This document shows, piece by piece, positions 5,001 to 56,682 of a DNA stretch of 64,000 bases (its first letter is position 1; each line of letters begins with the position of its first letter). Below the pieces are notes generated by a model. The model saw nothing but the letters and a program-made list of their open reading frames with translations, made no database searches and was not told the origin of the DNA. Made by a program: the position numbers and the translations under genes. This stretch comes from Bacteroidia bacterium (GTDB taxonomy: Bacteria > Bacteroidota > Bacteroidia > Chitinophagales > Chitinophagaceae), in NCBI GenBank assembly GCA_030429205.1, contig JAUICZ010000001.1, positions 610,806 to 674,805 on the forward strand, given 5' to 3'.

Positions 5001-8000
5001 GTATACACTGTAAAGCTGGTAACGACTCATGCGGCCGGATGTAAAGACAGTGCTACAAAAACAGTAACTGTAAACGGACCAACGGGTACACTAAGTTATA
5101 GTCCGGTAACGGGTTGTAATCCAGTAACTGTCAACTTTAGTGCAACGTCCAGCAACACTACGTCCTACATATGGGATATGAACAACGGGTTTTCGCAAAC
5201 CACCAGCATAGGTTCTTACTCTTATACATACACAACACCGGGTCAATACTTGCCAACATTAGTATTAAGTGATGGCGGCTCTTGTCAGGTGCCAATACAA
5301 TTGGGAGATACAGTAACGGTAGATGTACTTGATATTGATTTCAGTTTTACTTCATCGGGTAATTTATGTAGTGCCGATACGGTTCACTTTAACGATACGA
5401 TCATGACTACGTATAGTAATGTTTCAACTCGTTCATGGGATTTCGGCGATGGTAATAGCAGCAGTGCAGAAGATCCATCTCATTACTATAGTGCTGCTGG
5501 TACATACAATGTGCAACTAGTAGTAACTAATATTAATGGCTGCTCTGATACCGTAACAAAAAGTGTAACTATTAACGGCTTGCCAACGGTGAATATTTCT
5601 GCTTCTGCAGATTCTATTTGTCCGGGTCAGCTTACCGGGTCACAACTTACCGCTACAGGTGCAGATACTTTTTTATGGACACCGGCAACAGGATTATCTT
5701 GTACTACTTGTGCCAATCCTAATGCAAACCCTATATCTACAACTACCTATATCGTAACAGGTACAGACACGAATGGTTGTGAAAACAACGATACAGTAAC
5801 AGTATACTTAAAACCTAAACCAACCATATCAGTTAGTAACGATACTTCATTGTGTTCTAACAATGTTGCTCAACTATCTGCTACAGGTGCTACCACTTAT
5901 GCGTGGTCACCCGGCACAGGATTAAGTTGTACCAACTGTGCTAATCCATTTGCAAACCCACCTGCAACAGATACATTCACTGTTATTGGTACAAATAGTT
6001 ATGGCTGTTCTGATACCGATGAGGTAATCATAAATGTAATTCCGGCTCCAACAGTTGGGGTCAGCTCTAATGCTATTGTTTGTTCTGGAGATAGTGCTCT
6101 ACTGGTTGCTACGGGTGCAGTATCATATTCATGGACACCATTCACTACACTATCATGCAACAACTGCGATAGTACTTATGCAACACCAACATCAGGAGTA
6201 ACATACACAGTAGTAGGTACTGCAGCCAACGGTTGTAAAGACACTAACTCTGTTTCCGTTGGTGTAAACGGACTACCGACAGTTGACGCGGGTAACGATA
6301 CCAGCATATGTATCGGATCTTCAATTCAGTTACAAGCTACAGGTGCTAACAGCTACGCATGGACACCTGCAACAGCACTATCATGTACAGGCTGTGCCAG
6401 CCCGACCACATCTACCACTTCAACAATTACATACCATGTTGTTGGTACTGATGGTAATGGTTGTAAAGGAGAAGATACCGTGCTGATCACCGTGAACCCA
6501 TTACCTACCGTGAATGCTGGAAACGATAAAACAATTTGCTACGGCTTTAGCACAACATTAAATGCTACAGGAGCCACCACATATGCCTGGACACCGTCAA
6601 CAGGGTTAAGTTGTACTAACTGTGCAGGCCCAACGGCAAACCCGTTAAGTACGACCAACTATATAGTGACCGGTACTGATGGCAACAGTTGTATGAATAC
6701 AGATACAATAGTTGTATTTGTAAACCCACAGCCAACAGTTTCTGCAGGAAACGATACATCTATTTGTTTTGGAGATACGACACAACTACTGGCAACTGGT
6801 GCCGTGAGTTACTCATGGTCGCCATCTACAGGGTTGAGTTGTACCAACTGTGCTAACCCATTTGCATACCCTGCAACTACTACTACTTATACAGTAATAG
6901 GCACAGATGCAAATGGATGTAAAGACACCAATACCGTGAAAGTAACAGTAAATGCACTACCGAATATTTCTGCCGGCAGTAACAAGCAAATATGTATTGG
7001 TGATAGTGTACAACTAAACGGTACAGGAGGAGTATCATATATATGGACACCTGCAACTGGGTTAAGTTGTACCGGATGTAATAACCCATATGCAAAACCA
7101 ACTACGACAACAGTATATACTATTTCAGGTACTGACATCAACGGATGTAGCGATACCGCACAAGTACAGGTGACGGTGAACCCGCTGCCTACTGTTAGCG
7201 CGGGAGCAGATAAACAAGTTTGTGTAGGATATAGTACTACATTAACTGCTACAGGTGCTACTACATATGCATGGACACCATCAACAGGATTAAGTTGTAC
7301 CAACTGTGCCAGCCCAACGGCCAGCCCAACTACGACAACAACTTATATAGTAACCGGAACCGATGGTAATACGTGTAGCAACAAAGACACTGTTGTTGTA
7401 ACTATATATAGCCAACCTACAGTAAGTGGCGGTCCGGATAAAACAATTTGTATTGGCGATACTGCTCTATTAGTAGGTACAGGTGCTGCCACATATACAT
7501 GGTCGCCAACAGGTACTCTTTCTTGCAGTAATTGCGACAGCACAAATGCAACACCAACTACCACTACCACCTATACAGTAATAGGTACAGACGCTAGTGC
7601 ATGTAAAGACACCGCCACGGTGAAAGTAACGGTGAATGCACTACCGAATATTTCTGCAGGTGCAGATAAAACCATTTGTGTAAATAACAGCACTACATTA
7701 CAAGCTACGGGTGGTACTTCATACACATGGACACCGTCAACAGGGTTAAGCTGTACCAACTGTGCCAGCCCAACGGCCAACCCGACAACTACAACAACTT
7801 ATACAGTGACGGGTGTCGATGGCAACAGCTGTAGTAATACAGATCAGGTTACTGTAACGGTGAACCCGCTACCAACTGTTAGTGCGGGTAATGATGTAAG
7901 CATTTGTTTAAATGATAACACACAGCTACAGGCAACAGGTGCTGCCAACTACTCATGGTCACCATCAACAGGGTTAAGTTGTACCAACTGTGCCAGCCCA

Positions 8001-10001
8001 ACAGCCAGCCCGACAACTACAACAACGTATACGGTAATAGGTACTGATGCGAATGGATGTGTGAATGTAGATTCGGTAATAGTAACAATTAAACCACTAC
8101 CAACAGTTAATGCAGGTAACGATACAGCCATTTGTTTTGGAGACAGTGCACAGCTATTAGCTACAGGTGCAGCAAGCTATAGTTGGAACCCTACTTCCAG
8201 TTTAAGTTGTAGCAACTGCCCTAACCCGATATCGAGCACTTTGTTTACAACAACTTATGTAGTAACCGGTACGGCTGCAAATGCTTGTCAGGATACAGAC
8301 ACAGTAACAGTAAGTGTTAATCCGTTACCAAATATTAGTGCAGGAGCTGATCAGGATATTTGTGATGGTGATACGATTCAATTGAATGCAACAGGTGGGG
8401 TAAGTTACTCATGGTCGCCAACATCAGGTTTAAGCTGTAGTAACTGTCCTAACCCTTTTGCCAGTCCAATTAGTACAAGTACATATATCATAACCGGTAC
8501 TGATACCAACAGCTGTACTGATACAGGTAGTATTACTATCACGGTAAAACCACTACCGATTGTTACTGCAACAGCAGGCAGATATACTTTCTGTGAAGAC
8601 GATACAACGCAACTTACCGCTACAGGTGCAACCACATATTCGTGGACGCCAACAGGTATTCTTAATAATCCATTTATCGCAAACCCAATAGCCAACCCAA
8701 CAAGTGGCAGCAATGTTACGTTTGTTGTTACAGGTACAGACAATGGATGTAGCGATACCGCACAAGTACAAATAATCGCATTCGGGAAACCTAATGTATC
8801 TGCCAGCAACGATGTTGATTATTGTATCGGCGGTTCTGATACCTTAACTGCAAGCGGAGCACAAAATTACTCGTGGACACCGTCAACAGGTTTAAGTTGT
8901 GCTACCTGTGATACATTAGTAGCCAACCCGAGTGTTACAACAACTTATACTGTTACCGGTACAGATGGTAATGGTTGTTCTGATTCGGACAAGGTAATTG
9001 TAACTGTTCATCAGTTACCAACTATAAGTGCCGGTGGCGACACCTCTATATGTGCAGGAGACTCAGTATTCTTAAGAGCTTCGGGTGGTGCAACATATTT
9101 ATGGACACCAGCTACGGGACTAAGCTGTACAGCTTGCCCGAGTCCAAAGGCAACTACACAAAACTCATCTACATTCACAGTTACGGGTACAGATGCAAAC
9201 GGTTGTGTTAATACAGATGTCGTAACTATAAATGCGATACAAAAAGGAAGCTATGACTTTAGTAACGACACCGCTATTTGTATTGGTCAAGAAGCAACAT
9301 TAACAGCTACAGGCGGTACCAGCTACTTCTGGTACTCATTTGGCAGTATCAACAATCCAAACGATCAGACAATTACAGTTTCTCCTGAAACGACTACAAC
9401 TTATCGTGTTGTTATCAAACAGGGTATTTGTTTTGAAGACACGGGCTCTATGACGGTGACCATTTCACAACCACCAACCATTGATGCCGGACCAGACCAA
9501 ACAGTATCCGGCGGAGAAAGTGTACGTCTTGAAACAAAAACAAAAGGTGCAGTTAAATACGAATGGTCTCCTGTGGAAGGGTTGAGTTGTAGCGACTGTT
9601 CTAACCCGGTAATAACTCCTAAACGCAATACTACTTACAGAGTAATAGCAACATCTGCTCTTGGTTGTACGTCTGAGGATGATGTTACTATTTATGTCAC
9701 CTGTGGTGCAGATCAGGTATTTGTTGCTAATACATTTACACCAAATGGAGATGGTTTGAATGACAGGTTCTATCCGCAGGGTAGAGGGTTAGACAGAGCA
9801 GAAAGGTTTAGTGTTTACAATCGCTGGGGAGAGTTAATTTATGATGTACAAAATATACCGCTGAACGATCCGAATTACGGATGGGATGGTACTTATAAAA
9901 ACGAACCGTTGAAACCGGATGTATATGTCTATATCGTTCGTGTGATCTGCGATAATGGTCAGCCGATGGATATGAAAGGAGATATATCATTAATCAGATA
10001 A
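2025..10001 (+). CDS. Giant SprB-like T9SS adhesin with PKD and 4-Cys tandem repeats
   Basis: This 2658-aa secreted surface protein starts with a signal peptide (about residues 1-24, ending AHAQA). About 14 PKD-type domains follow (about residues 25-1185; WDFGDG motifs, each with a C-terminal TYTV-type strand). Then come 18 tandem modules of about 76 aa (about residues 1188-2560) with the pattern AGxDxxIC, ATGAxxYxWxP, LSCxxCxxP, TTTYxVxGTDxNGC. Most modules carry four cysteines. The last roughly 95 residues form a type B sorting (gliding-motility-associated C-terminal) domain: TFTPNGDGLNDRF, YNRWGELIY, WDGTYKNEPLKPDVYVY, ending DISLIR. The protein is therefore expected to cross the outer membrane by the type IX system. 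It is followed after 25 nt by a sprF-like gene, as for SprB/SprF in gliding bacteria. The adhesin role is inferred. Confidence 0.9.
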   Translation: MTKGFYAFVIVCMITIAPFFAHAQAPVASFTASKTSGCSPVVVQFTDQSTNSPTSWYWDLGNGGSSTLQNPAASYITPGTYTVILTATNSSGSTNDTNYITVYAAPTVAFTANDTSTACGTKTVTFTNSTTPNAGGPTLYLWDFGDGDSSTAANPTHTYTSSGTFSVSLVVTNSNGCTQTLTKSNYITVAPTPTIDFTANNTGGCNAPFSVTFTNNTTGGVSYQWLFGDGNGSTATSPSHTYTATGSYNVSLIATGSNTCSDTLTKNAYINIGSVSANFTYANACATLNTSFTNTTNPGPGTYSIWDFGDGTTDTAASPTHVYSSTGTYTVKLVEVYNNCTDTVTKSVTINSAPVAQFTASDSIGCSLPFGVNFTNSSTNANSYAWDLDGSTSTATSPSYSYTSLGKYTVKLVATNTTTGCSDTLEKKDYIQIQLMSATLSAAPYRACPGQNMFFSANPGSPFTGITYAWDFGDGNTTSCSGCNTQNRPYTTAGVYNASVIITANSGCKDTAYNTVYIDAKPTANFSGAPLTICPGGTVSFTNSSTGASSYTWDFDDGSTSSATNPSHGYVSYGTYDVTLIAKNQGCSDTLVRSSYVNVQLPDARFTSSYTCNNRLSYMFTDSSIGANTYAWDFGDGNTSTTSGTVTHTYASSGTYVCTLTVTNTGTGCTHTKTDTLNAVALNAPNFTASDSLLCLNDSVIFTRGNASTSVTYEWYFSNGSGVFVNNSQSASVLYKYTDPGSHDVMLKVTDGEGCTDSLIKSNYIKVGGGTVDFTVADTNVCSETSILFTDISVLSNFPVVFRFWDFDDNRDDSSAYANISHSFNNPGIYDVTLIVTDSIGCKYSTTKPSYIQSHRPTAQFSTNDTLVCAGDTVSFSNYSGGTSFTSLWNFGDGNTSTDLTPDHQYSATGIYDVTLFITDTFGCKDTAVIDSLVEVQKPTAAFSMSDTFGACPPLTVYMTDSSLNTVSRNWTFGNGSASSNTNPSVTYTYPGVYTVKLVTTHAAGCKDSATKTVTVNGPTGTLSYSPVTGCNPVTVNFSATSSNTTSYIWDMNNGFSQTTSIGSYSYTYTTPGQYLPTLVLSDGGSCQVPIQLGDTVTVDVLDIDFSFTSSGNLCSADTVHFNDTIMTTYSNVSTRSWDFGDGNSSSAEDPSHYYSAAGTYNVQLVVTNINGCSDTVTKSVTINGLPTVNISASADSICPGQLTGSQLTATGADTFLWTPATGLSCTTCANPNANPISTTTYIVTGTDTNGCENNDTVTVYLKPKPTISVSNDTSLCSNNVAQLSATGATTYAWSPGTGLSCTNCANPFANPPATDTFTVIGTNSYGCSDTDEVIINVIPAPTVGVSSNAIVCSGDSALLVATGAVSYSWTPFTTLSCNNCDSTYATPTSGVTYTVVGTAANGCKDTNSVSVGVNGLPTVDAGNDTSICIGSSIQLQATGANSYAWTPATALSCTGCASPTTSTTSTITYHVVGTDGNGCKGEDTVLITVNPLPTVNAGNDKTICYGFSTTLNATGATTYAWTPSTGLSCTNCAGPTANPLSTTNYIVTGTDGNSCMNTDTIVVFVNPQPTVSAGNDTSICFGDTTQLLATGAVSYSWSPSTGLSCTNCANPFAYPATTTTYTVIGTDANGCKDTNTVKVTVNALPNISAGSNKQICIGDSVQLNGTGGVSYIWTPATGLSCTGCNNPYAKPTTTTVYTISGTDINGCSDTAQVQVTVNPLPTVSAGADKQVCVGYSTTLTATGATTYAWTPSTGLSCTNCASPTASPTTTTTYIVTGTDGNTCSNKDTVVVTIYSQPTVSGGPDKTICIGDTALLVGTGAATYTWSPTGTLSCSNCDSTNATPTTTTTYTVIGTDASACKDTATVKVTVNALPNISAGADKTICVNNSTTLQATGGTSYTWTPSTGLSCTNCASPTANPTTTTTYTVTGVDGNSCSNTDQVTVTVNPLPTVSAGNDVSICLNDNTQLQATGAANYSWSPSTGLSCTNCASPTASPTTTTTYTVIGTDANGCVNVDSVIVTIKPLPTVNAGNDTAICFGDSAQLLATGAASYSWNPTSSLSCSNCPNPISSTLFTTTYVVTGTAANACQDTDTVTVSVNPLPNISAGADQDICDGDTIQLNATGGVSYSWSPTSGLSCSNCPNPFASPISTSTYIITGTDTNSCTDTGSITITVKPLPIVTATAGRYTFCEDDTTQLTATGATTYSWTPTGILNNPFIANPIANPTSGSNVTFVVTGTDNGCSDTAQVQIIAFGKPNVSASNDVDYCIGGSDTLTASGAQNYSWTPSTGLSCATCDTLVANPSVTTTYTVTGTDGNGCSDSDKVIVTVHQLPTISAGGDTSICAGDSVFLRASGGATYLWTPATGLSCTACPSPKATTQNSSTFTVTGTDANGCVNTDVVTINAIQKGSYDFSNDTAICIGQEATLTATGGTSYFWYSFGSINNPNDQTITVSPETTTTYRVVIKQGICFEDTGSMTVTISQPPTIDAGPDQTVSGGESVRLETKTKGAVKYEWSPVEGLSCSDCSNPVITPKRNTTYRVIATSALGCTSEDDVTIYVTCGADQVFVANTFTPNGDGLNDRFYPQGRGLDRAERFSVYNRWGELIYDVQNIPLNDPNYGWDGTYKNEPLKPDVYVYIVRVICDNGQPMDMKGDISLIR
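5586..9705 (+). repeat. 18 tandem 228-bp coding repeats
   Basis: In-frame tandem repeats of about 228 bp encode the 76-aa four-cysteine modules of the giant adhesin. Conservation is high even at DNA level around the LSCTNC segment, for example near 7290, 7740 and 7970. Outer copies (the 14th and the last two) are more diverged and lack some cysteines. Copy number may vary by recombination or be collapsed by assembly. Confidence 0.85.
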
Positions 10002-10026
10002 TTCAAAACGCAAAAATCATTTTTGT

Positions 10027-11100
10027 ATGAAAAAATATTTATTGCTAATAACCTGCTTTGTTTCGCTATGGGGTAGCTCATATGCACAAGACATTCACTT
10101 CTCTCAGTTTTATGAGAACAACATTATGCGTAACCCGGCACTAACAGGAATCTTTAGTGGCGATTATAAAGTAGGGGCAAACTACCGTACGCAATGGAGT
10201 AATATTTCTGTTCCATTCCAGACTCTTTTATTCTCAGCAGAAACACGCGTATTGGTAAACAAGTCTGTTGGAGATTACTTTAGCTTTGGTGTTACCGGTA
10301 CATACGACAAGGCCGGTACAATCAACTTTAATAGCATGCAAATATACCCTGCTATTAACTACAACAAATCTTTAGAAGACAGACGCAACTCTTATTTATC
10401 TGTAGGTTTTGCAGGTGGGTACATACAGCGTACTATAGATTTTTCTCAAGCTACATTCAGTTCTCAGTATGTAAATGGTGCTTACTCTTCCGAGAATATT
10501 TCAGGCGAAGATCTTAATAATGTATCTATACAAAACTATGATATATCGGCAGGTATTAGTTTGAATAGCTCATTCGGTCCGCAAAATATTGTGAACTACT
10601 ATTTAGGCTTTGCGGCATACCACCTCAACAAGCCACAACATACTTTTCAAGAAGATAACCCACTGGTTGTACTACGCACAAAGTATAATGCCAGTGCAGG
10701 CTTCAGCTGGACATTGACAAAAGAGTTTGGTATTACCAGCCACTGGAATTATACTAAGCAGGGTAACTACACTGAAGTGATCGGTGGTGGTTTTGTTAGT
10801 TGGAAAAACCCTTCGGAAATTGCCAGCAACTTTAAATTATACGCGGGTGCATTTTTCCGTTTTGGTGATGCAATTATCCCGACAGTAAAAATGGACTACC
10901 ATGTATACTCCATTACTTTCTCTTATGATGTAAACAGTTCTGCATTACGTACAGCATCATCGGGAGCAGGTGGTTACGAGTTATCGTTATTTGTAAAAGG
11001 CAGCTATAAAAAATCCAGACAAACCCCTGGCGGTGTTCCGTGTCCAAGGTTCGATCATATGCTGCCTGGTACACTTGGTGGCAATGGCACTAACTATTAA
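10027..11100 (+). CDS. PorP/SprF family type IX secretion membrane protein
   Basis: The 357-aa protein has a signal peptide (about residues 1-20, ending SSYAQ) and then the family start DIHFSQFYENNIMRNPALTGIF, followed by alternating beta-strand segments of an outer-membrane barrel. This matches the PorP/SprF family. SprF-like proteins act with T9SS type B substrates and are usually encoded directly next to the partner adhesin. Here the gene begins 25 nt after the giant type-B-sorted protein, so the two are probably cotranscribed and function as a pair. A hairpin terminator follows at 11127. Confidence 0.9.
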   Translation: MKKYLLLITCFVSLWGSSYAQDIHFSQFYENNIMRNPALTGIFSGDYKVGANYRTQWSNISVPFQTLLFSAETRVLVNKSVGDYFSFGVTGTYDKAGTINFNSMQIYPAINYNKSLEDRRNSYLSVGFAGGYIQRTIDFSQATFSSQYVNGAYSSENISGEDLNNVSIQNYDISAGISLNSSFGPQNIVNYYLGFAAYHLNKPQHTFQEDNPLVVLRTKYNASAGFSWTLTKEFGITSHWNYTKQGNYTEVIGGGFVSWKNPSEIASNFKLYAGAFFRFGDAIIPTVKMDYHVYSITFSYDVNSSALRTASSGAGGYELSLFVKGSYKKSRQTPGGVPCPRFDHMLPGTLGGNGTNY

Positions 11101-11126
11101 TATTTGTTTATCCTGATAAATACAAA

Positions 11127-11152
11127 AAGGGCATTTCTTTCGAAATGCCCTT
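11127..11152. terminator. Bidirectional hairpin terminator
   Basis: AAGGGCATTTC pairs with GAAATGCCCTT around a TTTC loop. It lies between two convergent genes, the sprF-like gene and the response-regulator gene. On the minus strand the stem is followed by TTTTT. Confidence 0.85.
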
Positions 11153-11178
11153 AATTAATTCTGTATAGTAAAATGTAG

Positions 11179-11880
11179 TTATGCTTTTTCTTCCGGCATT
11201 ACAAACTTAAAACCAATGCCATGTATTGTTTGTAGTTCAACACCTTCCTGACCTTTGATGTATTTTCTCACCTTGGTAATGAATACATCCATACTTCTAC
11301 CTAAGAAGTAATCTTCCTTACCCCAAACGTTCAATAATATTTCGTCTCTCTTCAATACTTTGTTAGCATTGGTACAGAAGTATTTGATCAAATCTGCTTC
11401 TCTCTGTGTTAGCTGCTTGTCCTTATCCGAACCTCTTAAAACAAGATTACTGTAATCGAACTCCAGCTCACCCAATTTGATAGAATCAGGAACTTCTTCT
11501 TCATGCTTCATGGTGCGTTTTAAGAATACATCCAAACGCAACAACAGCTCTTGCATGTTAAACGGCTTGGTAATGTAATCATCAGCACCACTTCTAAATC
11601 CTGCTATCTTATCATCATCCATCGACTTAGAAGTAAGCAATAGGATAGGGATGTTAGCATTCTTTTGACGTATTTGATTAGCCAAAGACATTCCATCTTT
11701 TTTAGGAAGCATTACATCCAACAAACAGATATCAAAGTTGTGTTTCATAAATTGCTGCCATGCCGCTTCCGCATCAGAGCAATGCACTACATCGTATCCG
11801 TTTTTGTTCAGGCTATCTTTAACAACGTAACTTAAGGTAGCGTCGTCCTATACCAATAGTATTTTTGCTTTATCCGCCAT
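11179..11880 (-). pseudogene. RprY-like OmpR-family response regulator interrupted by an amber codon
   Basis: Reading from ATG 11880, the frame gives MADKAKILLV, then TAG at 11848-11850, then DDATLSYVVKDSLNKNGYDV and on without further interruption to 11179. The expected protein has 233 codons. In receiver domains this position is normally E/D in the V-E-D-D motif, so GAG to TAG is the simplest explanation. The rest is intact: Asp12/Asp13 pocket, phosphoacceptor Asp55 (CLLDVMLPKKDG), the conserved Lys in LLLTSKS, and a C-terminal winged helix (LTQREADLIKYF, SMDVFITKVRKYI, TIHGIGFKF). Restart at the internal GTG 11787 would lose beta1, alpha1 and the acidic pocket. TAG is used as a normal stop elsewhere in the window (pdxJ, DUF3108), so recoding is unlikely. 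A recent nonsense mutation or a sequencing error is possible. Confidence 0.85.
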
Positions 11881-12066
11881 ACGAATTATTGAATTTTCAT
11901 GTATAGTAACTGTATAAAATAAATCCTCTACCCACAGTTTACAATTTGCAAGATACGCAAACAGATTGTTGTATGCAGATATATTGCGAAAAATTAATTG
12001 TATATTTTTGGGTTTTCCCCTACTTATTAACAATACTTGTATGTAAGTACTGTAGCAGGATACACA

Positions 12067-12074
12067 CAAAAATA
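12067..12074 (-). promoter_or_regulatory. Candidate -7 element upstream of the response-regulator gene
   Basis: On the minus strand this reads TATTTTTG (TAnnTTTG). It lies in the 222-bp gap between ruvC and the response-regulator start and would give a leader of roughly 180 nt. Weak support, as no -33 element was identified. Confidence 0.25.
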
Positions 12075-12102
12075 ATGTTTATCGTTTGTAAATGAAATAC
12101 AA

Positions 12103-12687
12103 TTATTTAAGTCTGTCCGGGTTTGATGCAATAAATGTTTCCCAAGACATTTTCTTCTTCTTTGCAGGCACCTTCACATTACTATCTCCTTTCAGATCAT
12201 CGTATTTCGATTGATAATGATGGCAAAGAGCTACGGCCACAGCATCTGTTGCATCCATAAAACGTACATCCTCCTGAAACTTTAGCGTGTGCTGCAGCAT
12301 TTGCCACACCTGCTCTTTAGTAGCACCTCCTCTTCCGGTTATAGACTGCTTTATTTTTTTGGGTGCATATTCTACTGCGGCCAACCCATGCATCATTGAT
12401 GCAGCTATTGCCACACCCTGTGCACGCCCCAGCTTAAGCATACTTTGTACATTCTTTCCATAGAATGGGGCCTCGATAGCTACAGATGCCGGCTTGTGTG
12501 TTTTGATCAGGCTTTCCATTTTCCTGAATATTAATTCTAATCGCTCTGCATGATCTTTATGCTTTGCCAACTGTAACACACCCATTTCCACCAACGAAAT
12601 GCTATTTTTGTCCACGGCAATCAGTCCGTACCCCATCACAATCGTGCCGGGATCGATACCTAAAATAATTTGAGGGCTGTTCTTCAA
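12103..12687 (-). CDS. ruvC: Crossover junction endodeoxyribonuclease RuvC
   Basis: RuvC is the Holliday-junction resolvase that acts with RuvAB in recombination and repair. The 194-aa protein starts ILGIDPGTIVMGYGLI (first catalytic Asp), has AIEAPFYGKNVQSMLKLGRAQG (catalytic Glu), and ends the nuclease core with FMDATDAVAVALCHH (final acidic pair). A Lys-rich C-terminal tail of about 35 aa follows. No ATG precedes the conserved N-terminus in frame, so TTG at 12687 is the likely start. A -7 element lies at 12708-12715. The gene is transcribed toward the broken response-regulator gene and diverges from a flippase-like gene. Confidence 0.93.
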   Translation of the reverse strand: MKNSPQIILGIDPGTIVMGYGLIAVDKNSISLVEMGVLQLAKHKDHAERLELIFRKMESLIKTHKPASVAIEAPFYGKNVQSMLKLGRAQGVAIAASMMHGLAAVEYAPKKIKQSITGRGGATKEQVWQMLQHTLKFQEDVRFMDATDAVAVALCHHYQSKYDDLKGDSNVKVPAKKKKMSWETFIASNPDRLK

Positions 12688-12702
12688 AATGTGAATACTG
12701 CT

Positions 12703-13644
12703 TTGAACAAAAGTACCAAAATATGGCTCAATTACCTTTTAGGTGGCACTATCTCTGTGCTGCTATTATGGGGTATATATGTACAGGTACTAAAGCAGCT
12801 GGAAAAAGTAGAGATTGAAACATTACTACAAACCGGACCTGATATCTATTTATGGTTATGCTTGCTGCTAATGCCGGTCAACTTATTATTGGAGGCAAAA
12901 AAGTGGCAGATACTGGTAGGTTCTGCACAACCGCTTACATACCGCAGAGCTATGGCCAGCTATCTGGCAGGTATCGCGTTTTCTCTTGTAACACCCAACA
13001 GGCTGGGCGAGTATCCAGGCCGGATGATATATTTAAAAAGGAAGAACACAGTACGTCTTATCAGTGTTTCTATATTAGGTGCGCTGGCACAAATGCTTAC
13101 ACTGTTTATTTTCGGGACATTGGGGCTGGTGTATTTTAATGTAAAATTTTATCACCCTTTTGCAGCGTTCCTCCTTATCGCTTCAAGTATTATCACTGTA
13201 ATACTAGGTATTGCATTCTGGCGTTTCGAAACATGGATGCCTGTTATTGAGAAGATCAAATGGTTGAGGCGTTTTCAGATATATAAAAAATTGTTAAAAC
13301 GGTTTTCGCAGCGTGAACAATTAGCCATCTTGTGCATCTCTTTAATAAGGTACAGCATTTACACGGCACAATATTTGTTTTTGTTGTATTGGATGAATGT
13401 GACAATGCCGTTTATGGATGGTTACTTAATGTCTGCATTATTCTTTTGGGTAATAACGATCATACCATCAATAACACTTGTGGAGTTGGGAGAACGTGGG
13501 CAGGTAGGGTTATACCTTTTCCACCACTTCTCAGAAAACACAGTGGGCATTTTAGGAGCAACAGTAGGGCTGTGGTGCATCAACTTGGTACTACCCGCCA
13601 TTTTAGGAAGTATACTTTTGATACGCATGCGCCTGCTGAAATAG
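12703..13644 (+). CDS. Lysylphosphatidylglycerol synthase TM region/UPF0104 family membrane protein
   Basis: An integral inner-membrane protein of about 313 aa with roughly eight hydrophobic segments. Recognisable blocks are NLLLEAKKWQILV and the LAGIAFSLVTPNRLGEYPGRMIYLKR segment, which is typical of the flippase-like/LPG_synthase_TM (YbhN, AglD) family. Members are linked to lipid or polyprenyl-glycan handling; the substrate here is unknown. There is no early ATG. TTG at 12703 gives the start MNKSTKIWLNY, which fits the family, while GTG 12691 or TTG 12670 would extend it, the latter overlapping ruvC. The gene is followed closely by a DUF3108 gene with its own promoter. Confidence 0.75.
   Translation: MNKSTKIWLNYLLGGTISVLLLWGIYVQVLKQLEKVEIETLLQTGPDIYLWLCLLLMPVNLLLEAKKWQILVGSAQPLTYRRAMASYLAGIAFSLVTPNRLGEYPGRMIYLKRKNTVRLISVSILGALAQMLTLFIFGTLGLVYFNVKFYHPFAAFLLIASSIITVILGIAFWRFETWMPVIEKIKWLRRFQIYKKLLKRFSQREQLAILCISLIRYSIYTAQYLFLLYWMNVTMPFMDGYLMSALFFWVITIIPSITLVELGERGQVGLYLFHHFSENTVGILGATVGLWCINLVLPAILGSILLIRMRLLK
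12708..12715 (-). promoter_or_regulatory. Candidate -7 element for ruvC
   Basis: Minus-strand TACTTTTG (TAnnTTTG), 20 nt upstream of the TTG start of ruvC. It overlaps the first codons of the divergent membrane-protein gene. Confidence 0.45.
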
Positions 13645-13669
13645 TAACATTCAGTTAGTACTTGACGAA

Positions 13670-13677
13670 TAAATTTG
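13670..13677 (+). promoter_or_regulatory. -7 element immediately before the DUF3108 gene
   Basis: TAAATTTG fits TAnnTTTG and lies only 6 nt upstream of the ATG at 13684, which predicts a leaderless or nearly leaderless mRNA. The alternative in-frame TTG at 13675 lies inside this element, which argues against it as the start. Confidence 0.5.
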
Positions 13678-48163: not shown

Positions 48164-49384
48164 TTAGCCTTCCCATCTTTTTACAACCAGAGACGAATTT
48201 GTACCACCAAAACCAAAAGAATTAGAAAGGAAGCAACCAAAATCTTTCTTTTCTGTATTGGCTACTATATTGATCTTGGCTGTGTGTTCATCCGGGTTTT
48301 CAAAATTGATGTTGGGCGCAATAAAACTGTTTTGCATCATCAACATAGAGTAAACAACTTCACTAGCTCCTGCCATCCAGCATTCATGCCCTGTCATAGA
48401 TTTAGTTGAGCTCACCGGTACATTACTGCCAAACACTTGATGAATAGCTTGTGCTTCCACACCATCGCCGGCAGGTGTAGAGGTGGCATGAGCATTTATA
48501 TATTGAATATCTTTTTCAGAAACTCCTGATTCTTTTAATGCCCTGCCGATAGATACTATCTGACCATCTACACTCGGGTTAGAAATATGCTGCCCGTTCG
48601 ACGAGAAACCATAGCCCAAAACTTCTGCTAATATAGTAGCTCCCCGGGCTTGTGCACTTTCAAGGCTTTCTATAATTACTGTTGCAGCTCCTCCTCCCGG
48701 TACCAGACCATCACGGTCTTTATCGAAAGGCCGACTGGCTTTTGTTGGTTCATCTTCTCGAACAGAGAAGGTTCCCAGCCCATCGAAGTTGGGCATAGAG
48801 TAGATGTTTACCTCTTGAGCACCACCACATATAACCCTGTCTTGCAGGCCTTGTTTGATGAACATGTAACCCAAGCCAATAGAGTGCGATCCACTGGCGC
48901 AGGCTGCACTGATGGTGAAGTTCACGCCACGAAGTTTGAATATCGTGGCCAGGTTCATGGTAACAGTAGAATTCAGCACCTGGAACACAGAGCCCGAACC
49001 CAATAACATGGTATCTTTCTTTTCACGAATCAGGTCTATACCTTCTATAACAGGTTGTGCACAGCTGTCGTTACCAAAGATGATACCTGTTTCGTTCTCT
49101 TCAAAATACTCTATGCTCATACCTGCCTGCTCCATAGCCTCTATAGTAGACATGTAAGCAAACTCGGCATGTTCAGGCATCATGATACGAGAGCGACGAT
49201 CCAGCAGACCTTTGAGTTTAGGGCGATCTACATGACCGGTTAGTGCAGAGCGGTAGCCCATTTCTTTACGAGCAGGGTCGAAAATAATGCCCGACTTACC
49301 GTCGAACAACGATTTTGTCACCTCTTCTTTACCAATACCCAAAGAAGAATATATACCCAACCCAGTTATGACTACTCTACTCAT
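48164..49384 (-). CDS. Beta-ketoacyl-ACP synthase (FabF-like, pigment-type)
   Basis: The 406-aa ketosynthase has the Cys-His-His triad: Cys162 in ISAACASGSHSIGLGY, His in NAHATSTPAGDG, and His in KSMTGHECWMAGASE. The end SNSFGFGGTNSSLVVKRW is typical. Length fits FabF-like condensing enzymes. A fabG and an ammonia-lyase gene lie 5 kb away on the same strand, as in flexirubin/aryl-polyene loci, so a role in polyene chain elongation is likely. A housekeeping FabF cannot be excluded from sequence alone. The gene is framed by terminators at both sides, so it is probably transcribed alone. Confidence 0.88.
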   Translation of the reverse strand: MSRVVITGLGIYSSLGIGKEEVTKSLFDGKSGIIFDPARKEMGYRSALTGHVDRPKLKGLLDRRSRIMMPEHAEFAYMSTIEAMEQAGMSIEYFEENETGIIFGNDSCAQPVIEGIDLIREKKDTMLLGSGSVFQVLNSTVTMNLATIFKLRGVNFTISAACASGSHSIGLGYMFIKQGLQDRVICGGAQEVNIYSMPNFDGLGTFSVREDEPTKASRPFDKDRDGLVPGGGAATVIIESLESAQARGATILAEVLGYGFSSNGQHISNPSVDGQIVSIGRALKESGVSEKDIQYINAHATSTPAGDGVEAQAIHQVFGSNVPVSSTKSMTGHECWMAGASEVVYSMLMMQNSFIAPNINFENPDEHTAKINIVANTEKKDFGCFLSNSFGFGGTNSSLVVKRWEG

Positions 49385-50323: not shown

Positions 50324-50824
50324 TTATAAATCTTTCTTATATCTGTACCCAACATCAAACAACTCAATACCTTTTGCGGCTAAAGCTTGTTTGAGTTTTT
50401 TACGCTCAAACCATGCCATACCATGTATAGGTACCTCCATTTCTGAACCATCTTTAAGTACTACGTGCATGATGTACCAACTGTTCGTACTGTTTCTGGT
50501 GCCGAAGGGATTACGTCGTGGCCTTGCCTTACCCGACTTTACTTTTAAATATACTCCTACTTCTTTTATGTCTTTCAGCCAGAACTGACAATCGTATTGG
50601 GTTAATGGAATGTAGCGGGTAACATGCAGCAGCTCATCATCCAGTGTGATCTTCATCATGTCTATAGCATCATGGTTCATATAAATGCCTATGACCAAAA
50701 CAATAATGAGCCCGCCAAAACCTGCAAACAATAAAGCGGTTATTGAGAACAATAAAATAATACCAATTATATATTGATAAGAACGGTAACCGAAGGTTTG
50801 GGTGTGTTGGTTTTTATCAGACAC
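50324..50824 (-). CDS. Small membrane protein of unknown function
   Basis: The 166-aa protein starts at GTG 50824. It has two adjacent hydrophobic helices (about residues 17-48, YIIGIILLFSITALLFAGFG and GLIIVLVIGIYM) and a C-terminal soluble domain of about 115 residues with alternating strands (KITLDDELLHVTRYIPLTQYDCQFWLKDIKEVGVYLKV, WYIMHVVLKDGSEMEVPIHG). The layout is reminiscent of membrane proteins with a PH-like domain, but I cannot assign a family. A decayed copy of its first 83 bp occurs 2.3 kb away at 53024-53108. Confidence 0.65.
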   Translation of the reverse strand: MSDKNQHTQTFGYRSYQYIIGIILLFSITALLFAGFGGLIIVLVIGIYMNHDAIDMMKITLDDELLHVTRYIPLTQYDCQFWLKDIKEVGVYLKVKSGKARPRRNPFGTRNSTNSWYIMHVVLKDGSEMEVPIHGMAWFERKKLKQALAAKGIELFDVGYRYKKDL

Positions 50825-51472: not shown

Positions 51473-51494
51473 TTGTTGGTGACGAACACCAACA
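51473..51494. repeat. Hairpin repeat, copy 1
   Basis: A 22-bp palindromic element with arms TGTTGGTG/CACCAACA and a 5-nt loop. It differs at one loop base from the copy at 52980-53001. It lies 10 bp after a stop codon and may act as a terminator. Confidence 0.7.
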
Positions 51495-51517
51495 GTGGTT
51501 AAAATTGATTTATACTA

Positions 51518-52975: not shown

Positions 52976-53006
52976 GCCCTTGTTGGTGAGGAACACCAAC
53001 AAGGGC
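52976..53006. repeat. Hairpin repeat, copy 2, likely terminator
   Basis: A perfect 13-bp stem (GCCCTTGTTGGTG with CACCAACAAGGGC) with a 5-nt loop. The inner 22 bp (52980-53001) match copy 1 at 51473-51494 at 21 positions. It lies 18 bp after the ABM stop and directly borders the decayed gene fragment at 53024. Confidence 0.75.
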
Positions 53007-53023
53007 AAAAGAACAATACTTCC

Positions 53024-53108
53024 ATTGAGAACAATAAGATAATACCAGTTATGTATTGATAGGAATGGTAAGTAAAGGTTTGAGGGTGTAGGGTTTATTA
53101 GTTTGCAC
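53024..53108 (-). pseudogene. Decayed fragment of a paralogue of the 166-aa membrane protein
   Basis: This segment aligns with 50742-50824, the first 83 bp of the membrane-protein gene, in the same orientation. The inner 59 positions match at 51 sites by eye. The minus-strand reading QTFTYHSYQYITGIILLFS corresponds to QTFGYRSYQYIIGIILLFS of the intact gene. The presumed start region has an indel, and coding ends at the hairpin repeat. It is a relic of a former second copy, truncated at or near the hairpin element. Confidence 0.7.
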
Positions 53109-53131: not shown

Positions 53132-54040
53132 TTATTTATTGTGAAAATAAAATTTACCGTCTAAAAAGTAGGGTCCGATTAGTTCTAAACCATATTGGTC
53201 TTTCATTTGTAAGAAAACAGATTCAGGCGGCAAGTCTTTAACGACAACTCCTCTACCCTCATTTTTTAATACTTCATCTGGCATATACAATATACCAAAG
53301 TTTCCATGATTGAAATAATGCAGTAATGCAGGGTTTTTACAGTGCTTTGATACCAATGTAGAGATAGTGTAACTTCCTATTTCTGCACTTCCATCATCTA
53401 GTGTTAAGACTTCGTTTGCTTTGATAGATATTGAGGTTAACCCACGATGTGATATTAACGAGTCGCTATAGAAAAAACAAGCTCCGTTTTTAGGGTTAAA
53501 TACCGTTTCAACCATAAAATCACCTATTTCAGGGATAGATTGTTCTTCCAATAACTTCTGAAAGCCATTTTTGAATGCTCTTTGTAGCTCTGTACTTTTT
53601 TCTTGCTCGCTTTTATAAATGTATTGAAATCGATTAAATGCGCTATAGCTACCAATCCAAACACTATCAGATGATATAGAAACTTCTTGTTTCGTAATTT
53701 TAAATAGAAACTGATCTTGTTTATTCGCACATGCTAAAATAAACTCTACATCATCGCCATAATCAACTATTTTCTTTTGTAAATACATTGACATTTCCTC
53801 AATACTTGAAAAGCGTATTTTTTGGAATTCTAATATTATTGAACATGCTGCACTTACATCTCCCGCATAACTTATGCATATCCCATTAAATATTATAATA
53901 GATTTCAATGCTCCTTTTTCAGGAGCAATACGAAGCTTATGACCTCCTGTAGTTGATTTGTCTGGAGAATCTATAGATAGTTTTGTATCTGATAGAATGA
54001 TTGTAACACCATCCATCTTCTTGGCGATAATAATAGACAT
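53132..54040 (-). CDS. Putative Ntn-hydrolase (proteasome/HslV-fold) protein with N-terminal Ser
   Basis: The 302-aa protein begins M-SIIIAKKMDGVTIILSDTKLS. After Met removal Ser would be residue 1, with Asp17 in LSDTK and Lys34 in GGHKLRIA. HslV/proteasome beta subunits have Thr1, Asp17 and Lys33 in the same arrangement. IIIFNGICISYAGDVSAACSIILEFQ then resembles the family's central G-x-A-G strand-turn-helix. No signal peptide is seen. No ATPase partner (HslU or Mpa type) is adjacent. The fold assignment is inferred from spacing and pattern; activity, partners and processing are unknown. The gene is AT-rich and ends the leftward TAL-fabG-orf103 run. Confidence 0.5.
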   Translation of the reverse strand: MSIIIAKKMDGVTIILSDTKLSIDSPDKSTTGGHKLRIAPEKGALKSIIIFNGICISYAGDVSAACSIILEFQKIRFSSIEEMSMYLQKKIVDYGDDVEFILACANKQDQFLFKITKQEVSISSDSVWIGSYSAFNRFQYIYKSEQEKSTELQRAFKNGFQKLLEEQSIPEIGDFMVETVFNPKNGACFFYSDSLISHRGLTSISIKANEVLTLDDGSAEIGSYTISTLVSKHCKNPALLHYFNHGNFGILYMPDEVLKNEGRGVVVKDLPPESVFLQMKDQYGLELIGPYFLDGKFYFHNK

Positions 54041-54081: not shown

Positions 54082-54393
54082 CTACGTATACAGCCCACCG
54101 TTATTACTTTGAGCCAAAATATCTTCTTTCAACTCATTGGGTATATTAGTCCATTTTGTATTAGAAGATAAGATTAGCTTACAGCCATATTGGTATGCTA
54201 AGTCATAGATATGGCGATACCAATCTAAATACGTCCAATCTAAAGGAGGAGTAGAGTATAAATAACGACCCTCTTGATTCCAGTTAACTCCAGCCGCCTC
54301 TCTGTAAATGTATGGGAACCCTTCTTTTTCAACTCTAAGACAGAGCCTTGTTTCTTTATCAATAAATACTTCTAATATGTGGTCTGTTTTCAT
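54082..54393 (-). CDS. 103-aa orphan protein sharing its C-terminal codons with fabG
   Basis: A small cytosolic protein: MKTDHILEVFIDKETRLCLRVEKEGFPYIYREAAGVNWNQEGRYLYSTPPLDWTYLDWYRHIYDLAYQYGCKLILSSNTKWTNIPNELKEDILAQSNNGGLYT. I do not know a named family. Its ATG overlaps the fabG stop codon (TAATG), so translation is probably coupled. Its last six residues, NGGLYT, equal those of FabG and are encoded by a 21-bp segment that matches the fabG 3' end at 19 positions. The gene appears to have been inserted at the end of fabG, with duplication of that end. Confidence 0.6.
   Translation of the reverse strand: MKTDHILEVFIDKETRLCLRVEKEGFPYIYREAAGVNWNQEGRYLYSTPPLDWTYLDWYRHIYDLAYQYGCKLILSSNTKWTNIPNELKEDILAQSNNGGLYT
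54083..54103. repeat. Direct repeat of the fabG 3' end, left copy
   Basis: This matches 54394-54414 at 19 of 21 positions. Both differences are transitions at third codon positions that keep NGGLYT. It encodes the end of the 103-aa gene. Confidence 0.85.
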
Positions 54394-55127
54394 TACGTAT
54401 ACAGTCCACCATTAATAGACACTACTTGCCCGGTAATGTAGCCCGCCTTTTTAGAGGCTAAGAAACCCACCAAGTCGGCAATCTCCTGTACCTCGCCAAA
54501 GCGTTGCATCGGTATCATTTTCTTCAGGTCGGCTTCGTTCAGCTCTTCGGTCATATCGGTTTTAATAAAGCCCGGTGCAATTGCGTTCACGGTAATGTTA
54601 CGTTTAGCAATTTCTTGGCCCAATGCTTTGGTAGCACCTATCATACCTGCTTTGGCGGCAGAGTAGTTCACTTGTCCTGCCTGCCCTTTTAAACCACTTA
54701 GCGATACCATATTGATGATACGTCCGTAGCGGTTCATCAGCATCGGCTTCAGCACTTGTTTGGTTACATTGTACATACCATTCAGGCTGGTATCCAGTAC
54801 GCCGTCCCACTGGTCGTCGGTCATGCTCATCATCAAAATATCCTGACGGATACCTGCATTGTTGATCAGCACTTCTATGATAGATTCTTTATTGGCTTCC
54901 TGCCAATCGGTAATAGCTTTTTCTACAGCAGCTTTATCAGCCACGTCAAATTGCATGCCTTCCGCTTTCACTCCCTGCTCTTCAATCAGCTTGATGGTTT
55001 CGTCTGCCGCTGCTTTGTTGCCGCGATAGTTCACCAAAATGTTATAACCCATTTTAGCCAACTCTATACAACAAGCCCTGCCAATACCACGAGAGCCACC
55101 GGTTACTAATGCGTACTTATTTTCCAT
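54393..55127 (-). CDS. fabG: 3-oxoacyl-ACP reductase FabG-like (SDR)
   Basis: The 244-aa short-chain dehydrogenase has TGGSRGIG (NADPH-binding loop, residues 9-16), NNAG (89-92), catalytic Ser142, Tyr155 and Lys159, and PGFIKTDM. It ends YITGQVVSINGGLYT. It reduces 3-oxoacyl-ACP. It sits one base after the ammonia-lyase stop, so the two are cotranscribed, which fits reduction steps of flexirubin/aryl-polyene chain building rather than, or besides, housekeeping fatty-acid synthesis. GC content here is visibly higher than in the block to its left. Its terminal codons are duplicated at 54083-54103. Confidence 0.92.
   Translation of the reverse strand: MENKYALVTGGSRGIGRACCIELAKMGYNILVNYRGNKAAADETIKLIEEQGVKAEGMQFDVADKAAVEKAITDWQEANKESIIEVLINNAGIRQDILMMSMTDDQWDGVLDTSLNGMYNVTKQVLKPMLMNRYGRIINMVSLSGLKGQAGQVNYSAAKAGMIGATKALGQEIAKRNITVNAIAPGFIKTDMTEELNEADLKKMIPMQRFGEVQEIADLVGFLASKKAGYITGQVVSINGGLYT
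54394..54414. repeat. Direct repeat of the fabG 3' end, right copy (in fabG)
   Basis: The last codons of fabG (NGGLYT plus the first two bases of the stop). The related copy is 311 bp to the left. Together they bracket the 103-aa gene like target duplications of an inserted segment. Confidence 0.85.
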
Positions 55128-55128
55128 G

Positions 55129-56682
55129 CTAAATTTTCTTTTTGAATTGTGCTACTATGTCTGTGTCTTTCATCCACTCCTTCACCTGTTGCAGGTTGGG
55201 CGATGCGGCAAAATCTTCTTTAAAGAATGGGAACAGTTTACGTACCCCGTTGTACAACCATTTGGTAGACGGTGCCAGACGGTCAGATATTTCTCTAATG
55301 TCAATAGCCTGTACCAGTGCTACCGCTTCTACCGCCAATACCTCGTAAGTATTGTCGATGACACGGTTACACATCATAGCGGCGTTAGTACCCATGCTCA
55401 CAATATCCTGATTGTCGTTATTGTTTGGGATGCTGTGGATATACATCGGGTTGCTGAGTGTTTGGTTCTCTGCTACTGTTGATGTTGCAGGGTATTGCAT
55501 ACCTTGTATACCAAAGTTCAAACCCAGTTTACCCGCATTGGCAAAGGCAGGTAGTTTTTGGTTCAGTGCAGGGTTCAGCAAAAAGTTCAACTGACGCTCT
55601 GCCAGCATAGACAGTTTGGTCACTGCCACTTTCAGCTTATCCATTTCCAAAGCAATATAATCGCCGTGGAAGTTACCACCGTGAAAAACGTTTTTGTTCT
55701 TGTAATCTACTACAGGGTTGTCGTTCACGCTGTTCAGCTCGTTCATCACTACCTCTTCTGCATTGATCACCGTATCGAACACAGGGCCCAGTATCTGCGG
55801 TACACAACGTAGCGAATAGTACTCCTGTACCTTATCTTCAATTACGTCTTGCGTTACCTTTTTGTCGTACAAGTGTTCGTGACGCTTACGCATCAACCCA
55901 CTGTCTGCACCCAATATGCGCATCCACTCTGCTACCAACTGCTGCCCTCTGTGTTTTTTCACATTGTTCAGCTCTGCAGAAAAGTGGTCGTCATAGGCTT
56001 CCATCATCTCATTCACCATCAGCGACAAGAGCATGCTCCATACCACCAACCTGTGCGCACGTATCACGTTGATGCCACCGATACCAGTCATAGACGATGT
56101 ACCGTTCATCAACGCCAGCCCTTCGCGGGCATATATTTTAAGGGGCTTCAGCTTCAGCTCCTTATAAACTTTTTTAGCGGGCAATATCTCTCCGTTGTAC
56201 CAAAACTCACCTTCACCTATCAGGCCAAGCGCCAAATGCGCCAGTTGCACCAAGTCTCCACTGGCACCCACACCACCGTGTGCGTATACTACAGGGTATG
56301 CCTCGTTATTGATGAGATTGGTCATGAGTTGTACCAGATCCGGATGAATCCCCGAATAACCTAATACCATAGTATGCAGACGAGCCAGCATCATGGCACG
56401 AGTTTGTATAGTATTCAACCTTTGCCCCATACCACTGCTGTGGCTGCGGATGAGGTTGTACTGTAACTCTCTGCGGTCATCATCATTAATACGGTATTGA
56501 GCCATAGGACCAAAACCGGTATTGATGCCGTATATCAGTTTATCTTTCGAGAATGATTTAAGGAATTCGTAGCAGCGTGTTGCCTCCTTTACGGCAGAGG
56601 GCGTTAAGTTCACCTCTTTCTGGTAAAGTACAATCTGCTCAAACGAGTCTAAATCTAAAGGTTTTCCACCCAGCGCAATCAT
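55129..56682 (-). CDS. Aromatic amino acid ammonia-lyase (tyrosine ammonia-lyase-like)
   Basis: The 517-aa protein forms the MIO cofactor from Ala140-Ser141-Gly142 (HGGVGASGDLVQLAHLALGLIGEGE). It also has YGINTGFGPM (catalytic Tyr), EGLALMNGTSSMTG, VQEYYSLRCVPQILGP, SVNDNPVVD, HGGNFHGDYIALEMDKL and PNNNDNQDIVSMGTNAA. The pattern, including LIRSHSSGMG, closely resembles the flavobacterial tyrosine ammonia-lyases that supply 4-coumarate as the flexirubin starter. Histidine ammonia-lyase is the alternative, but no hutU, hutI or hutG gene is nearby. It is the first gene of the fabG operon. Confidence 0.9.
   Translation of the reverse strand: MIALGGKPLDLDSFEQIVLYQKEVNLTPSAVKEATRCYEFLKSFSKDKLIYGINTGFGPMAQYRINDDDRRELQYNLIRSHSSGMGQRLNTIQTRAMMLARLHTMVLGYSGIHPDLVQLMTNLINNEAYPVVYAHGGVGASGDLVQLAHLALGLIGEGEFWYNGEILPAKKVYKELKLKPLKIYAREGLALMNGTSSMTGIGGINVIRAHRLVVWSMLLSLMVNEMMEAYDDHFSAELNNVKKHRGQQLVAEWMRILGADSGLMRKRHEHLYDKKVTQDVIEDKVQEYYSLRCVPQILGPVFDTVINAEEVVMNELNSVNDNPVVDYKNKNVFHGGNFHGDYIALEMDKLKVAVTKLSMLAERQLNFLLNPALNQKLPAFANAGKLGLNFGIQGMQYPATSTVAENQTLSNPMYIHSIPNNNDNQDIVSMGTNAAMMCNRVIDNTYEVLAVEAVALVQAIDIREISDRLAPSTKWLYNGVRKLFPFFKEDFAASPNLQQVKEWMKDTDIVAQFKKKI

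What the first reader, a model, noticed from the sequence alone, without database searches (positions are those of the whole stretch)
53132..54040. Possible stand-alone proteasome-fold (Ntn) protein with serine nucleophile
After Met removal the protein would start with Ser1, with Asp17 and Lys34 placed like the Thr1/Asp17/Lys33 triad of HslV and proteasome beta subunits, followed by a matching G-x-C-x-S-Y-A-G strand. It has no adjacent unfoldase and lies in an accessory block. Bacterial proteasome-like proteins outside the HslV, Anbu and BPH groups are little studied, and a Ser nucleophile would be unusual.
Basis: inference. Interest (0 to 1): 0.68.

Follow-up and report, generated by a model that had tools for sequence, protein, structure and literature searches.

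The report
Mobile proteasome-like protein, serine nucleophile
A lone bacterial gene that no curated protein-family model recognises encodes a proteasome-fold protein with an intact predicted catalytic triad (Ser, Asp, Lys) and an extra C-terminal domain; it belongs to a rare, jumping gene family, one relative of which sits in an integron-type gene cassette.

Summary
The 302-aa ORF at 53132-54040 (-) matches no Pfam, NCBIfam, PHROG, PADLOC or PDB-sequence entry. Its AlphaFold model is a complete proteasome beta-type fold (VIA Z 17.6 to Anbu and 20S subunits; residue 2 falls on chain residue 1), and a six-sequence profile aligns with HslV over 156 columns, better than all 60 controls. Six homologues (19-44% identical) all keep Ser/Thr at position 2, Asp18 and Lys46. 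A serine nucleophile is precedented (BPH, CodW, one Anbu). The family adds a C-terminal domain without a PDB match and is very patchy (4 of 395 phylum genomes, none of three congeners). The window copy lies just downstream of fabG, where homology with congeners ends; a Thr-type homologue is a single-gene integron-type cassette. Most likely a mobile accessory Ntn peptidase/amidase, activated by Met removal, working without a dedicated unfoldase. Activity, oligomer and substrate are unknown; membership of one of the 22 subfamilies of Fuchs et al. 2021 could not be tested.

The parts
53132..54040 (-). Gene of the proteasome-like (Ntn-fold) protein P0001, 302 aa, ATG start
   Evidence: full-length homologues
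53447..54037 (-). Residues 2-198: predicted proteasome beta-type Ntn domain
   Evidence: AlphaFold model; Foldseek; VIA Z 17.6 over 169 residues to Anbu 5nyw
54035..54037 (-). Ser2 codon (Ser1 after Met removal), predicted nucleophile; Ser or Thr in 6/6 homologues
   Evidence: model residue 2 aligned with residue 1 of proteasome/Anbu chains
53987..53989 (-). Asp18 codon (mature Asp17), 6/6
53903..53905 (-).
   Evidence: spacing to the A-G pair as in HslV K33
53861..53863 (-). Gly60 codon, counterpart of the oxyanion-hole Gly47, 5/6
   Evidence: PMC8665760
53918..53977 (-). Residues 22-41: low-confidence loop, about 12 residues longer than in HslV, at the S3/S4 insertion site
53135..53446 (-). 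Residues 199-302: C-terminal extension; residues about 223-302 form a small beta-rich domain without a PDB match
54082..54393 (-). Upstream ORF, Pfam Hfx_Cass5 (integron cassette protein family, E 9e-17); its ATG overlaps the fabG stop (TAATG)
   Evidence: PMC3548836
54083..54106 (.). 24-nt copy (88%) of the fabG 3' end, closing the Hfx_Cass5 ORF
   Evidence: family D9
54394..54417 (.). Native fabG 3' end; homology to three congeners stops here
53024..53096 (-). 73-nt truncated duplicate (84%) of the start of the gene at 50324-50824, just downstream of P0001: rearrangement scar
   Evidence: family D1; homologue of the intact gene in L068

Best explanation
P0001 is a divergent, stand-alone member of the proteasome-like N-terminal-nucleophile (Ntn) proteins, carried as a mobile accessory gene. 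Methionine aminopeptidase would remove Met1 and expose Ser1. Ser1 (Thr in some relatives), with Asp17 and Lys45 (mature numbering) in the central beta sandwich, would attack amide or peptide bonds through an acyl-enzyme intermediate, with Gly59 (Gly60 with Met) at the oxyanion hole. The long loop between strands S2 and S5 and the extra C-terminal domain would restrict access or bind a specific substrate or partner, so that it acts without a dedicated unfoldase as a specific peptidase or amidase rather than a bulk protein degrader. Shown: ORF, conservation, homologues, accessory location. Predicted by computation: fold and triad placement. Inferred: Met removal, catalysis, specificity, roles of loop and C-terminal domain.
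For: AlphaFold model pLDDT 77.6, pTM 0.80, with the strand/helix order of a proteasome beta subunit. Foldseek: 1056 PDB matches at E<=0.001, the listed top 50 all proteasome chains. VIA: all 1000 chains Z>=8, best 17.6 to Anbu 5nyw and 20S subunits, model residue 2 aligned with chain residue 1. Family profile vs HslV profile: score 23.3 over 156 columns in full-length register against 13.2 +/- 1.8 (max 17.1) for 60 reversed/shuffled controls; the known HslV-Anbu pair scores 21.4. Ser/Thr2, Asp18, Lys46 in 6/6. No unfoldase among neighbouring ORFs and no shared neighbour gene among the six loci. Ser1 is used by other proteasome-like proteins.
Against: No activity data. The counterpart of the proteasome's auxiliary Ser129 is not conserved (S,N,E,N,D,E), and Asp174, which I take as the Asp166 counterpart, and the oxyanion Gly are lost in the most distant member L007. 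Single-sequence and PF00227 searches find no link to the proteasome family. In one homologue (L003) the Ser at position 2 requires a TTG start. Ser is less efficient than Thr in the proteasome (PMC5777263).
Confidence: 0.6

Rival explanations
1. Same fold and nucleophile, but the protein is a specific transpeptidase/protein ligase like archaeal connectase, whose long insertion at S3/S4 covers the active site.
For: Insertion at the same S3/S4 site (residues 22-41) and no unfoldase; connectase is a ligase with an insertion there (PMC8665760).
Against: Helices H1/H2, absent in connectase, are present here; the loop is short (about 12 extra residues) and of low confidence; three homologues lack most of it.
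Confidence: 0.12
2. A catalytically inactive scaffold or binding protein with the proteasome fold, as in proteasome alpha subunits.
For: Auxiliary active-site positions vary; the oxyanion Gly is Ser in L007.
Against: Nucleophile, Asp and Lys are invariant (Ser/Thr exchange only) at 19-44% pairwise identity, as expected under selection for catalysis.
Confidence: 0.15
3. It is a member of one of the 22 published proteasome-like subfamilies found in Bacteroidetes (AAH, CPH, PMI-1, -2, -4, -6), so not a new subfamily (compatible with the best explanation of how it works).
For: Those groups are very divergent, have orphan contexts, and several carry insertions or C-terminal domains (PMC8665760).
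Against: No tblastn match in phage records, where AAH, CPH, PMI-4 and PPH occur; no H3/H4 insertion, which PMI-2 to PMI-6 have. Their sequences could not be compared here.
Confidence: 0.3
4. A mobile anti-phage defence effector: a proteasome-like enzyme acting on a phage or host protein on infection.
For: Patchy mobile gene, single-gene cassette in one genome, hypervariable site in another.
Against: No PADLOC match and no recognised defence genes next to it; location alone is weak evidence.
Confidence: 0.15

Closest known systems
HslV (ClpQ)
   Same: Ntn fold; Thr/Ser1-Asp17-Lys triad in register; profile similarity above all 60 controls
   Different: No PF00227 match, no HslU nearby, longer S2-S5 loop, extra C-terminal domain; host genome has no HslV
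Anbu
   Same: Fold, top VIA match (5nyw Z 17.6, tied with 20S subunits); no propeptide; no unfoldase
   Different: No sequence link above controls (3 of 60 shuffles as good); no Anbu-type long C-terminal helix in the model; Bacteroidota Anbu-like proteins (L055-L065) start MT[YF]CL
BPH
   Same: Ser1 in all BPH outside Betaproteobacteria, shifted Lys (Lys-37 in Td-BPH), no known unfoldase (PMC5777263; PMC8665760)
   Different: No BPH sequence was compared here; BPH is classified in the Pfam proteasome family, P0001 is not matched by it
Connectase
   Same: Stand-alone proteasome-like protein; insertion at S3/S4
   Different: Connectase lacks H1/H2, present here; archaeal; protein ligase
The 22 subfamilies of Fuchs et al. 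2021 (PMC8665760)
   Same: Divergent, orphan, patchy proteasome-like proteins with Thr1/Ser1, often with insertions or C-terminal domains
   Different: Sequence membership could not be tested; integron-type cassette carriage is not mentioned in the parts read

Membership tests
Proteasome-like (Ntn) proteins in the sense of Fuchs et al. 2021 | Proteasome beta-type fold with S1-S11 core and helices H1-H4 | tested here: met
   (predicted model)
Proteasome-like (Ntn) proteins in the sense of Fuchs et al. 2021 | Thr1/Ser1, Asp17, Lys33 counterparts conserved | tested here: met
   6/6 at positions 2, 18, 46; geometry not measured
Proteasome-like (Ntn) proteins in the sense of Fuchs et al. 2021 | Oxyanion-hole Gly47 counterpart | tested here: met
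   Gly60, 5/6 homologues; Ser in L007
Proteasome-like (Ntn) proteins in the sense of Fuchs et al. 2021 | Sequence relatedness to a known member | tested here: met
   profile vs HslV, 0 of 60 controls as good; weak in absolute terms, P 0.015
Pfam PF00227 (Proteasome) | Score above the curated cut-off of 22.4 bits | tested here: not met
   no match at E<=10 for any of six members; none in the host genome at E<=1
HslV | Member of PF00227 next to the unfoldase gene hslU | tested here: not met
   no PF00227 match; no AAA+ ORF among neighbours (read from translations)
Anbu | Sequence similarity to Anbu profile | tested here: inconclusive
   21 columns aligned, 3 of 60 shuffles as good
BPH | Sequence similarity and double heptameric ring | not tested
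   no BPH sequences at hand
Connectase | Lacks helices H1/H2, two-helix insertion at S3/S4 | tested here: not met
   H1 62-73 and H2 80-94 present in the model
PMI-2 to PMI-6 | Insertion between H3 and H4 | tested here: not met
   H3 ends 148, H4 starts 152 in the P0001 model; L003 and L007 have a longer stretch near there
AAH, CPH, PMI-1 | Clustering with the published sequences | not testable with these tools
   sequences not held; only tblastn against phage records, negative
Integron gene cassette (homologue in L071) | One gene between two attC-like sites whose boundary bases pair head to tail | tested here: met
   cassette 7402-8325, 8 leading bases pair; three following cassettes 8, 9, 9; two of three sites fold clearly better than shuffles (z -4.2, -3.7), the cassette's own site less so (z -1.9)
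Integron (L071 array) | IntI integrase above the curated cut-off | tested here: not met
   recombinase L071:884-1990 scores 204.7 against cut-off 265 for TIGR02249
Integron gene cassette (window copy) | attC-like flanks | tested here: inconclusive
   none seen by eye in the flanks

The most novel reading that the evidence does not exclude
An undescribed subfamily of proteasome-like enzymes in which Ser and Thr nucleophiles interchange, with its own C-terminal domain of unseen fold, spread between Bacteroidota as a mobile gene (integron-type cassette in one genome) and acting without unfoldase or ring, as a specific peptidase, ligase or defence enzyme.
Probability: 0.3. Interest if true: 0.65.

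Novelty: new variant of a known kind. Interest (0 to 1): 0.45.

Why it matters
It adds a divergent, apparently mobile branch to the proteasome-like proteins that no Pfam or NCBIfam model used here detects, and it comes with natural Ser and Thr versions of the same protein, which could test directly why proteasomes keep threonine. Finding a proteasome-fold gene as a one-gene integron-type cassette suggests that such proteins can be useful to a new host alone, without partner genes.

Tried and rejected
Single-sequence searches in viral contigs, phages and plasmids with family members found nothing (the Vibrio hits are E 0.5-1 chance). Alignment A2 was too divergent to seed the contig scans; A3 in viral contigs found none. 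Matches at E 0.004-0.05 are short and taken as chance. A conserved membrane-protein neighbour was suspected from L002 and L007 and dropped: absent from the other loci. The idea that the window copy is itself an integron cassette was dropped for lack of attC-like flanks. Foldseek/VIA of the C-terminal domain alone: best E 0.69 and Z 4.4, no family named.

Full report
OBSERVATION. The ORF 53132-54040 (-) encodes 302 aa from ATG. Residue numbers below count Met as 1; subtract one for the mature protein. It has no Pfam, NCBIfam, PHROG, PADLOC or PDB-sequence match of note. The host genome (3.64 Mb, completeness 100) holds one copy and no PF00227 protein at all.

HOMOLOGUES. Genome searches gave relatives in other Bacteroidota (same GTDB phylum): L002 (G312) and L003 (G356), L005 (G828), L007 (G231), and L009 (a Flavobacterium MAG). 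L008 is the same contig as L005 and is titled uncultured Tenacibaculum; G312 is in the same genus as G828. Pairwise identities are 19-44%. All six are intact frames of 293-302 aa. The starts read MSIIIAK (three), MTLVICR, MTLIVAR and, for L003, a TTG codon immediately before SLVVAQ; that start is my inference. With the six-sequence profile, 4 of 395 genomes sampled across the phylum, the host included, have a full-length match. None of three congeners or of the other relatives searched with the single sequence has one.

CATALYTIC RESIDUES. Position 2 is Ser in four and Thr in two; Asp18 and Lys46 are invariant; Gly60 is kept in five. Lys46 stands 14 residues before the Gly of the A-G pair, as HslV Lys33 stands about 15 before its own (HslV numbering from general knowledge). 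A displaced lysine is precedented: Lys-37 in BPH (PMC5777263). The position matching the proteasome's auxiliary Ser129 (131) is not conserved; Asp174 is kept in five.

FOLD. AlphaFold2 with the six-sequence alignment gave pLDDT 77.6 and pTM 0.80. Residues 2-198 show two N-terminal strands, a strand pair 47-60, helices 62-73 and 80-94, four strands, helices 132-148 and 152-165, and closing strands: the proteasome beta order. The listed top 50 Foldseek PDB hits are all proteasome chains (best E 9e-8). VIA-align gave Z 17.6 (rmsd 3.0, 169 residues) to Anbu 5nyw and the same Z to 20S subunits, which are therefore tied; residue 2 aligns with chain residue 1. Geometry of the active site was not measured, as coordinates are not exported.

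SEQUENCE LINK. A profile of the six against Bacteroidota HslV (loci) scores 23.3 over 156 columns, positions 4-178 on 3-163. One reversed and 59 column-shuffled HslV profiles scored 13.2 +/- 1.8, at most 17.1. The known homologues HslV and Anbu score 21.4 by the same method. Against Anbu the family is not above controls (3 of 60 as good). So homology to the proteasome-like proteins is supported by sequence as well as by fold, though PF00227 itself does not detect any of the six.

EXTRA PARTS. Residues 22-41 are a low-confidence loop at the S3/S4 site where connectase, PMI-5 and PMI-6 carry insertions (PMC8665760). Residues 199-302 lie outside the proteasome fold. Predicted alone they give a small beta-rich domain (pLDDT 75.5) with no PDB match (Foldseek best E 0.69, VIA best Z 4.4). 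With such a modest model, a missing match is weak evidence of a new fold.

LOCATION AND MOBILITY. In three congeners the HAL-fabG block is 76-79% identical to the window and the match ends at the fabG stop (54394); what follows differs in each. In the window fabG overlaps (TAATG) an ORF of the Hfx_Cass5 family, first known from an integron cassette recovered from environmental DNA (PMC3548836), then P0001 follows 41 nt later. The last 24 nt of that ORF copy the fabG 3' end (88%), and a 73-nt truncated copy of a neighbouring gene lies just downstream of P0001. These look like insertion or rearrangement scars; the mechanism was not resolved. GC is 0.33 in the gene and 0.46 in fabG.

INTEGRON-TYPE CASSETTE. 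In G312 (L071) the Thr-type homologue is a 924-bp single-gene cassette (7402-8325) in an array. Its head TTAGGGCA pairs with its tail over 8 bases, and the three following cassettes pair over 8, 9 and 9. The attC-like sites fold with z -1.9 (the cassette's own site), -4.2 and -3.7. A tyrosine recombinase lies upstream (884-1990), matching XerA and integron-integrase models below their cut-offs, so the array is integron-type but its integrase is not a curated IntI. L005 lies among repeated mobile-element debris, L009 alone between housekeeping genes, L007 next to a PhoH-like gene and L003 next to an ABC ATPase (read from translations). No neighbour is shared.

MECHANISM. Met removal before Ser/Thr is standard for bacterial methionine aminopeptidase (general knowledge), and Fuchs et al. 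note that propeptides are absent outside proteasome beta and HslV. The likeliest mode is Ntn catalysis by Ser1 with Lys45 and Asp17, giving an acyl-enzyme that is hydrolysed. The orphan context argues for a substrate that needs no unfolding. This is inference; ligase, inactive and defence readings are listed as rivals.

NOVELTY. Ser1 is not new: all BPH outside Betaproteobacteria, CodW and one Anbu have it. Orphan proteasome-like proteins are not new: 22 subfamilies are published, several in Bacteroidetes. New here, as far as tested, are the family itself (no curated model), its C-terminal domain, Ser/Thr exchange within one family, and carriage as an integron-type cassette. Whether it falls into a published subfamily could not be tested offline, which is the main limit on the novelty claim.

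Noticed in passing
L071:884-1990 and 4977-13674 (G312, same genus as a Tenacibaculum MAG): Array of attC-like sites (about 125 nt, head/tail pairing 8-9 bases) beside a XerA/integron-integrase-like recombinase with an N-terminal extension of about 95 aa that scores below the IntI cut-off: possibly a non-canonical Bacteroidota integron.
   Followed up: partly
L066:1426-2202 (G120): ORF of 258 aa with an apparent signal peptide followed by G-T-T-V-F..GADSKF, weak PF00227 match (E 0.0036): looks like a secreted proteasome-like protein.
   Followed up: no
window 54082-54417: Hfx_Cass5-family ORF overlapping the fabG stop (TAATG), ending in a 24-nt copy of the fabG 3' end (311-bp unit): possible site-specific insertion at the fabG 3' end.
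   Followed up: partly
window 50742-50814 and 53024-53096: 73-nt duplicate (84%) of the start of the gene 50324-50824, truncated copy beside P0001.
   Followed up: partly
window 51473-51503 and 52980-53010: Two similar hairpins (TTGTTGGTG..GAACACCAACA), probably terminators, 84% identical.
   Followed up: no
window 48164-49384 and 54393-56682: Ketosynthase, fabG and HAL-type ammonia-lyase genes on one strand, resembling a flexirubin/aryl-polyene pigment cluster interrupted by the accessory block (names from reading translations).
   Followed up: no
L002:2935-3576 and L007:2462-2947: Multi-TM ORFs downstream of two of the six homologues; not found at the others.
   Followed up: partly
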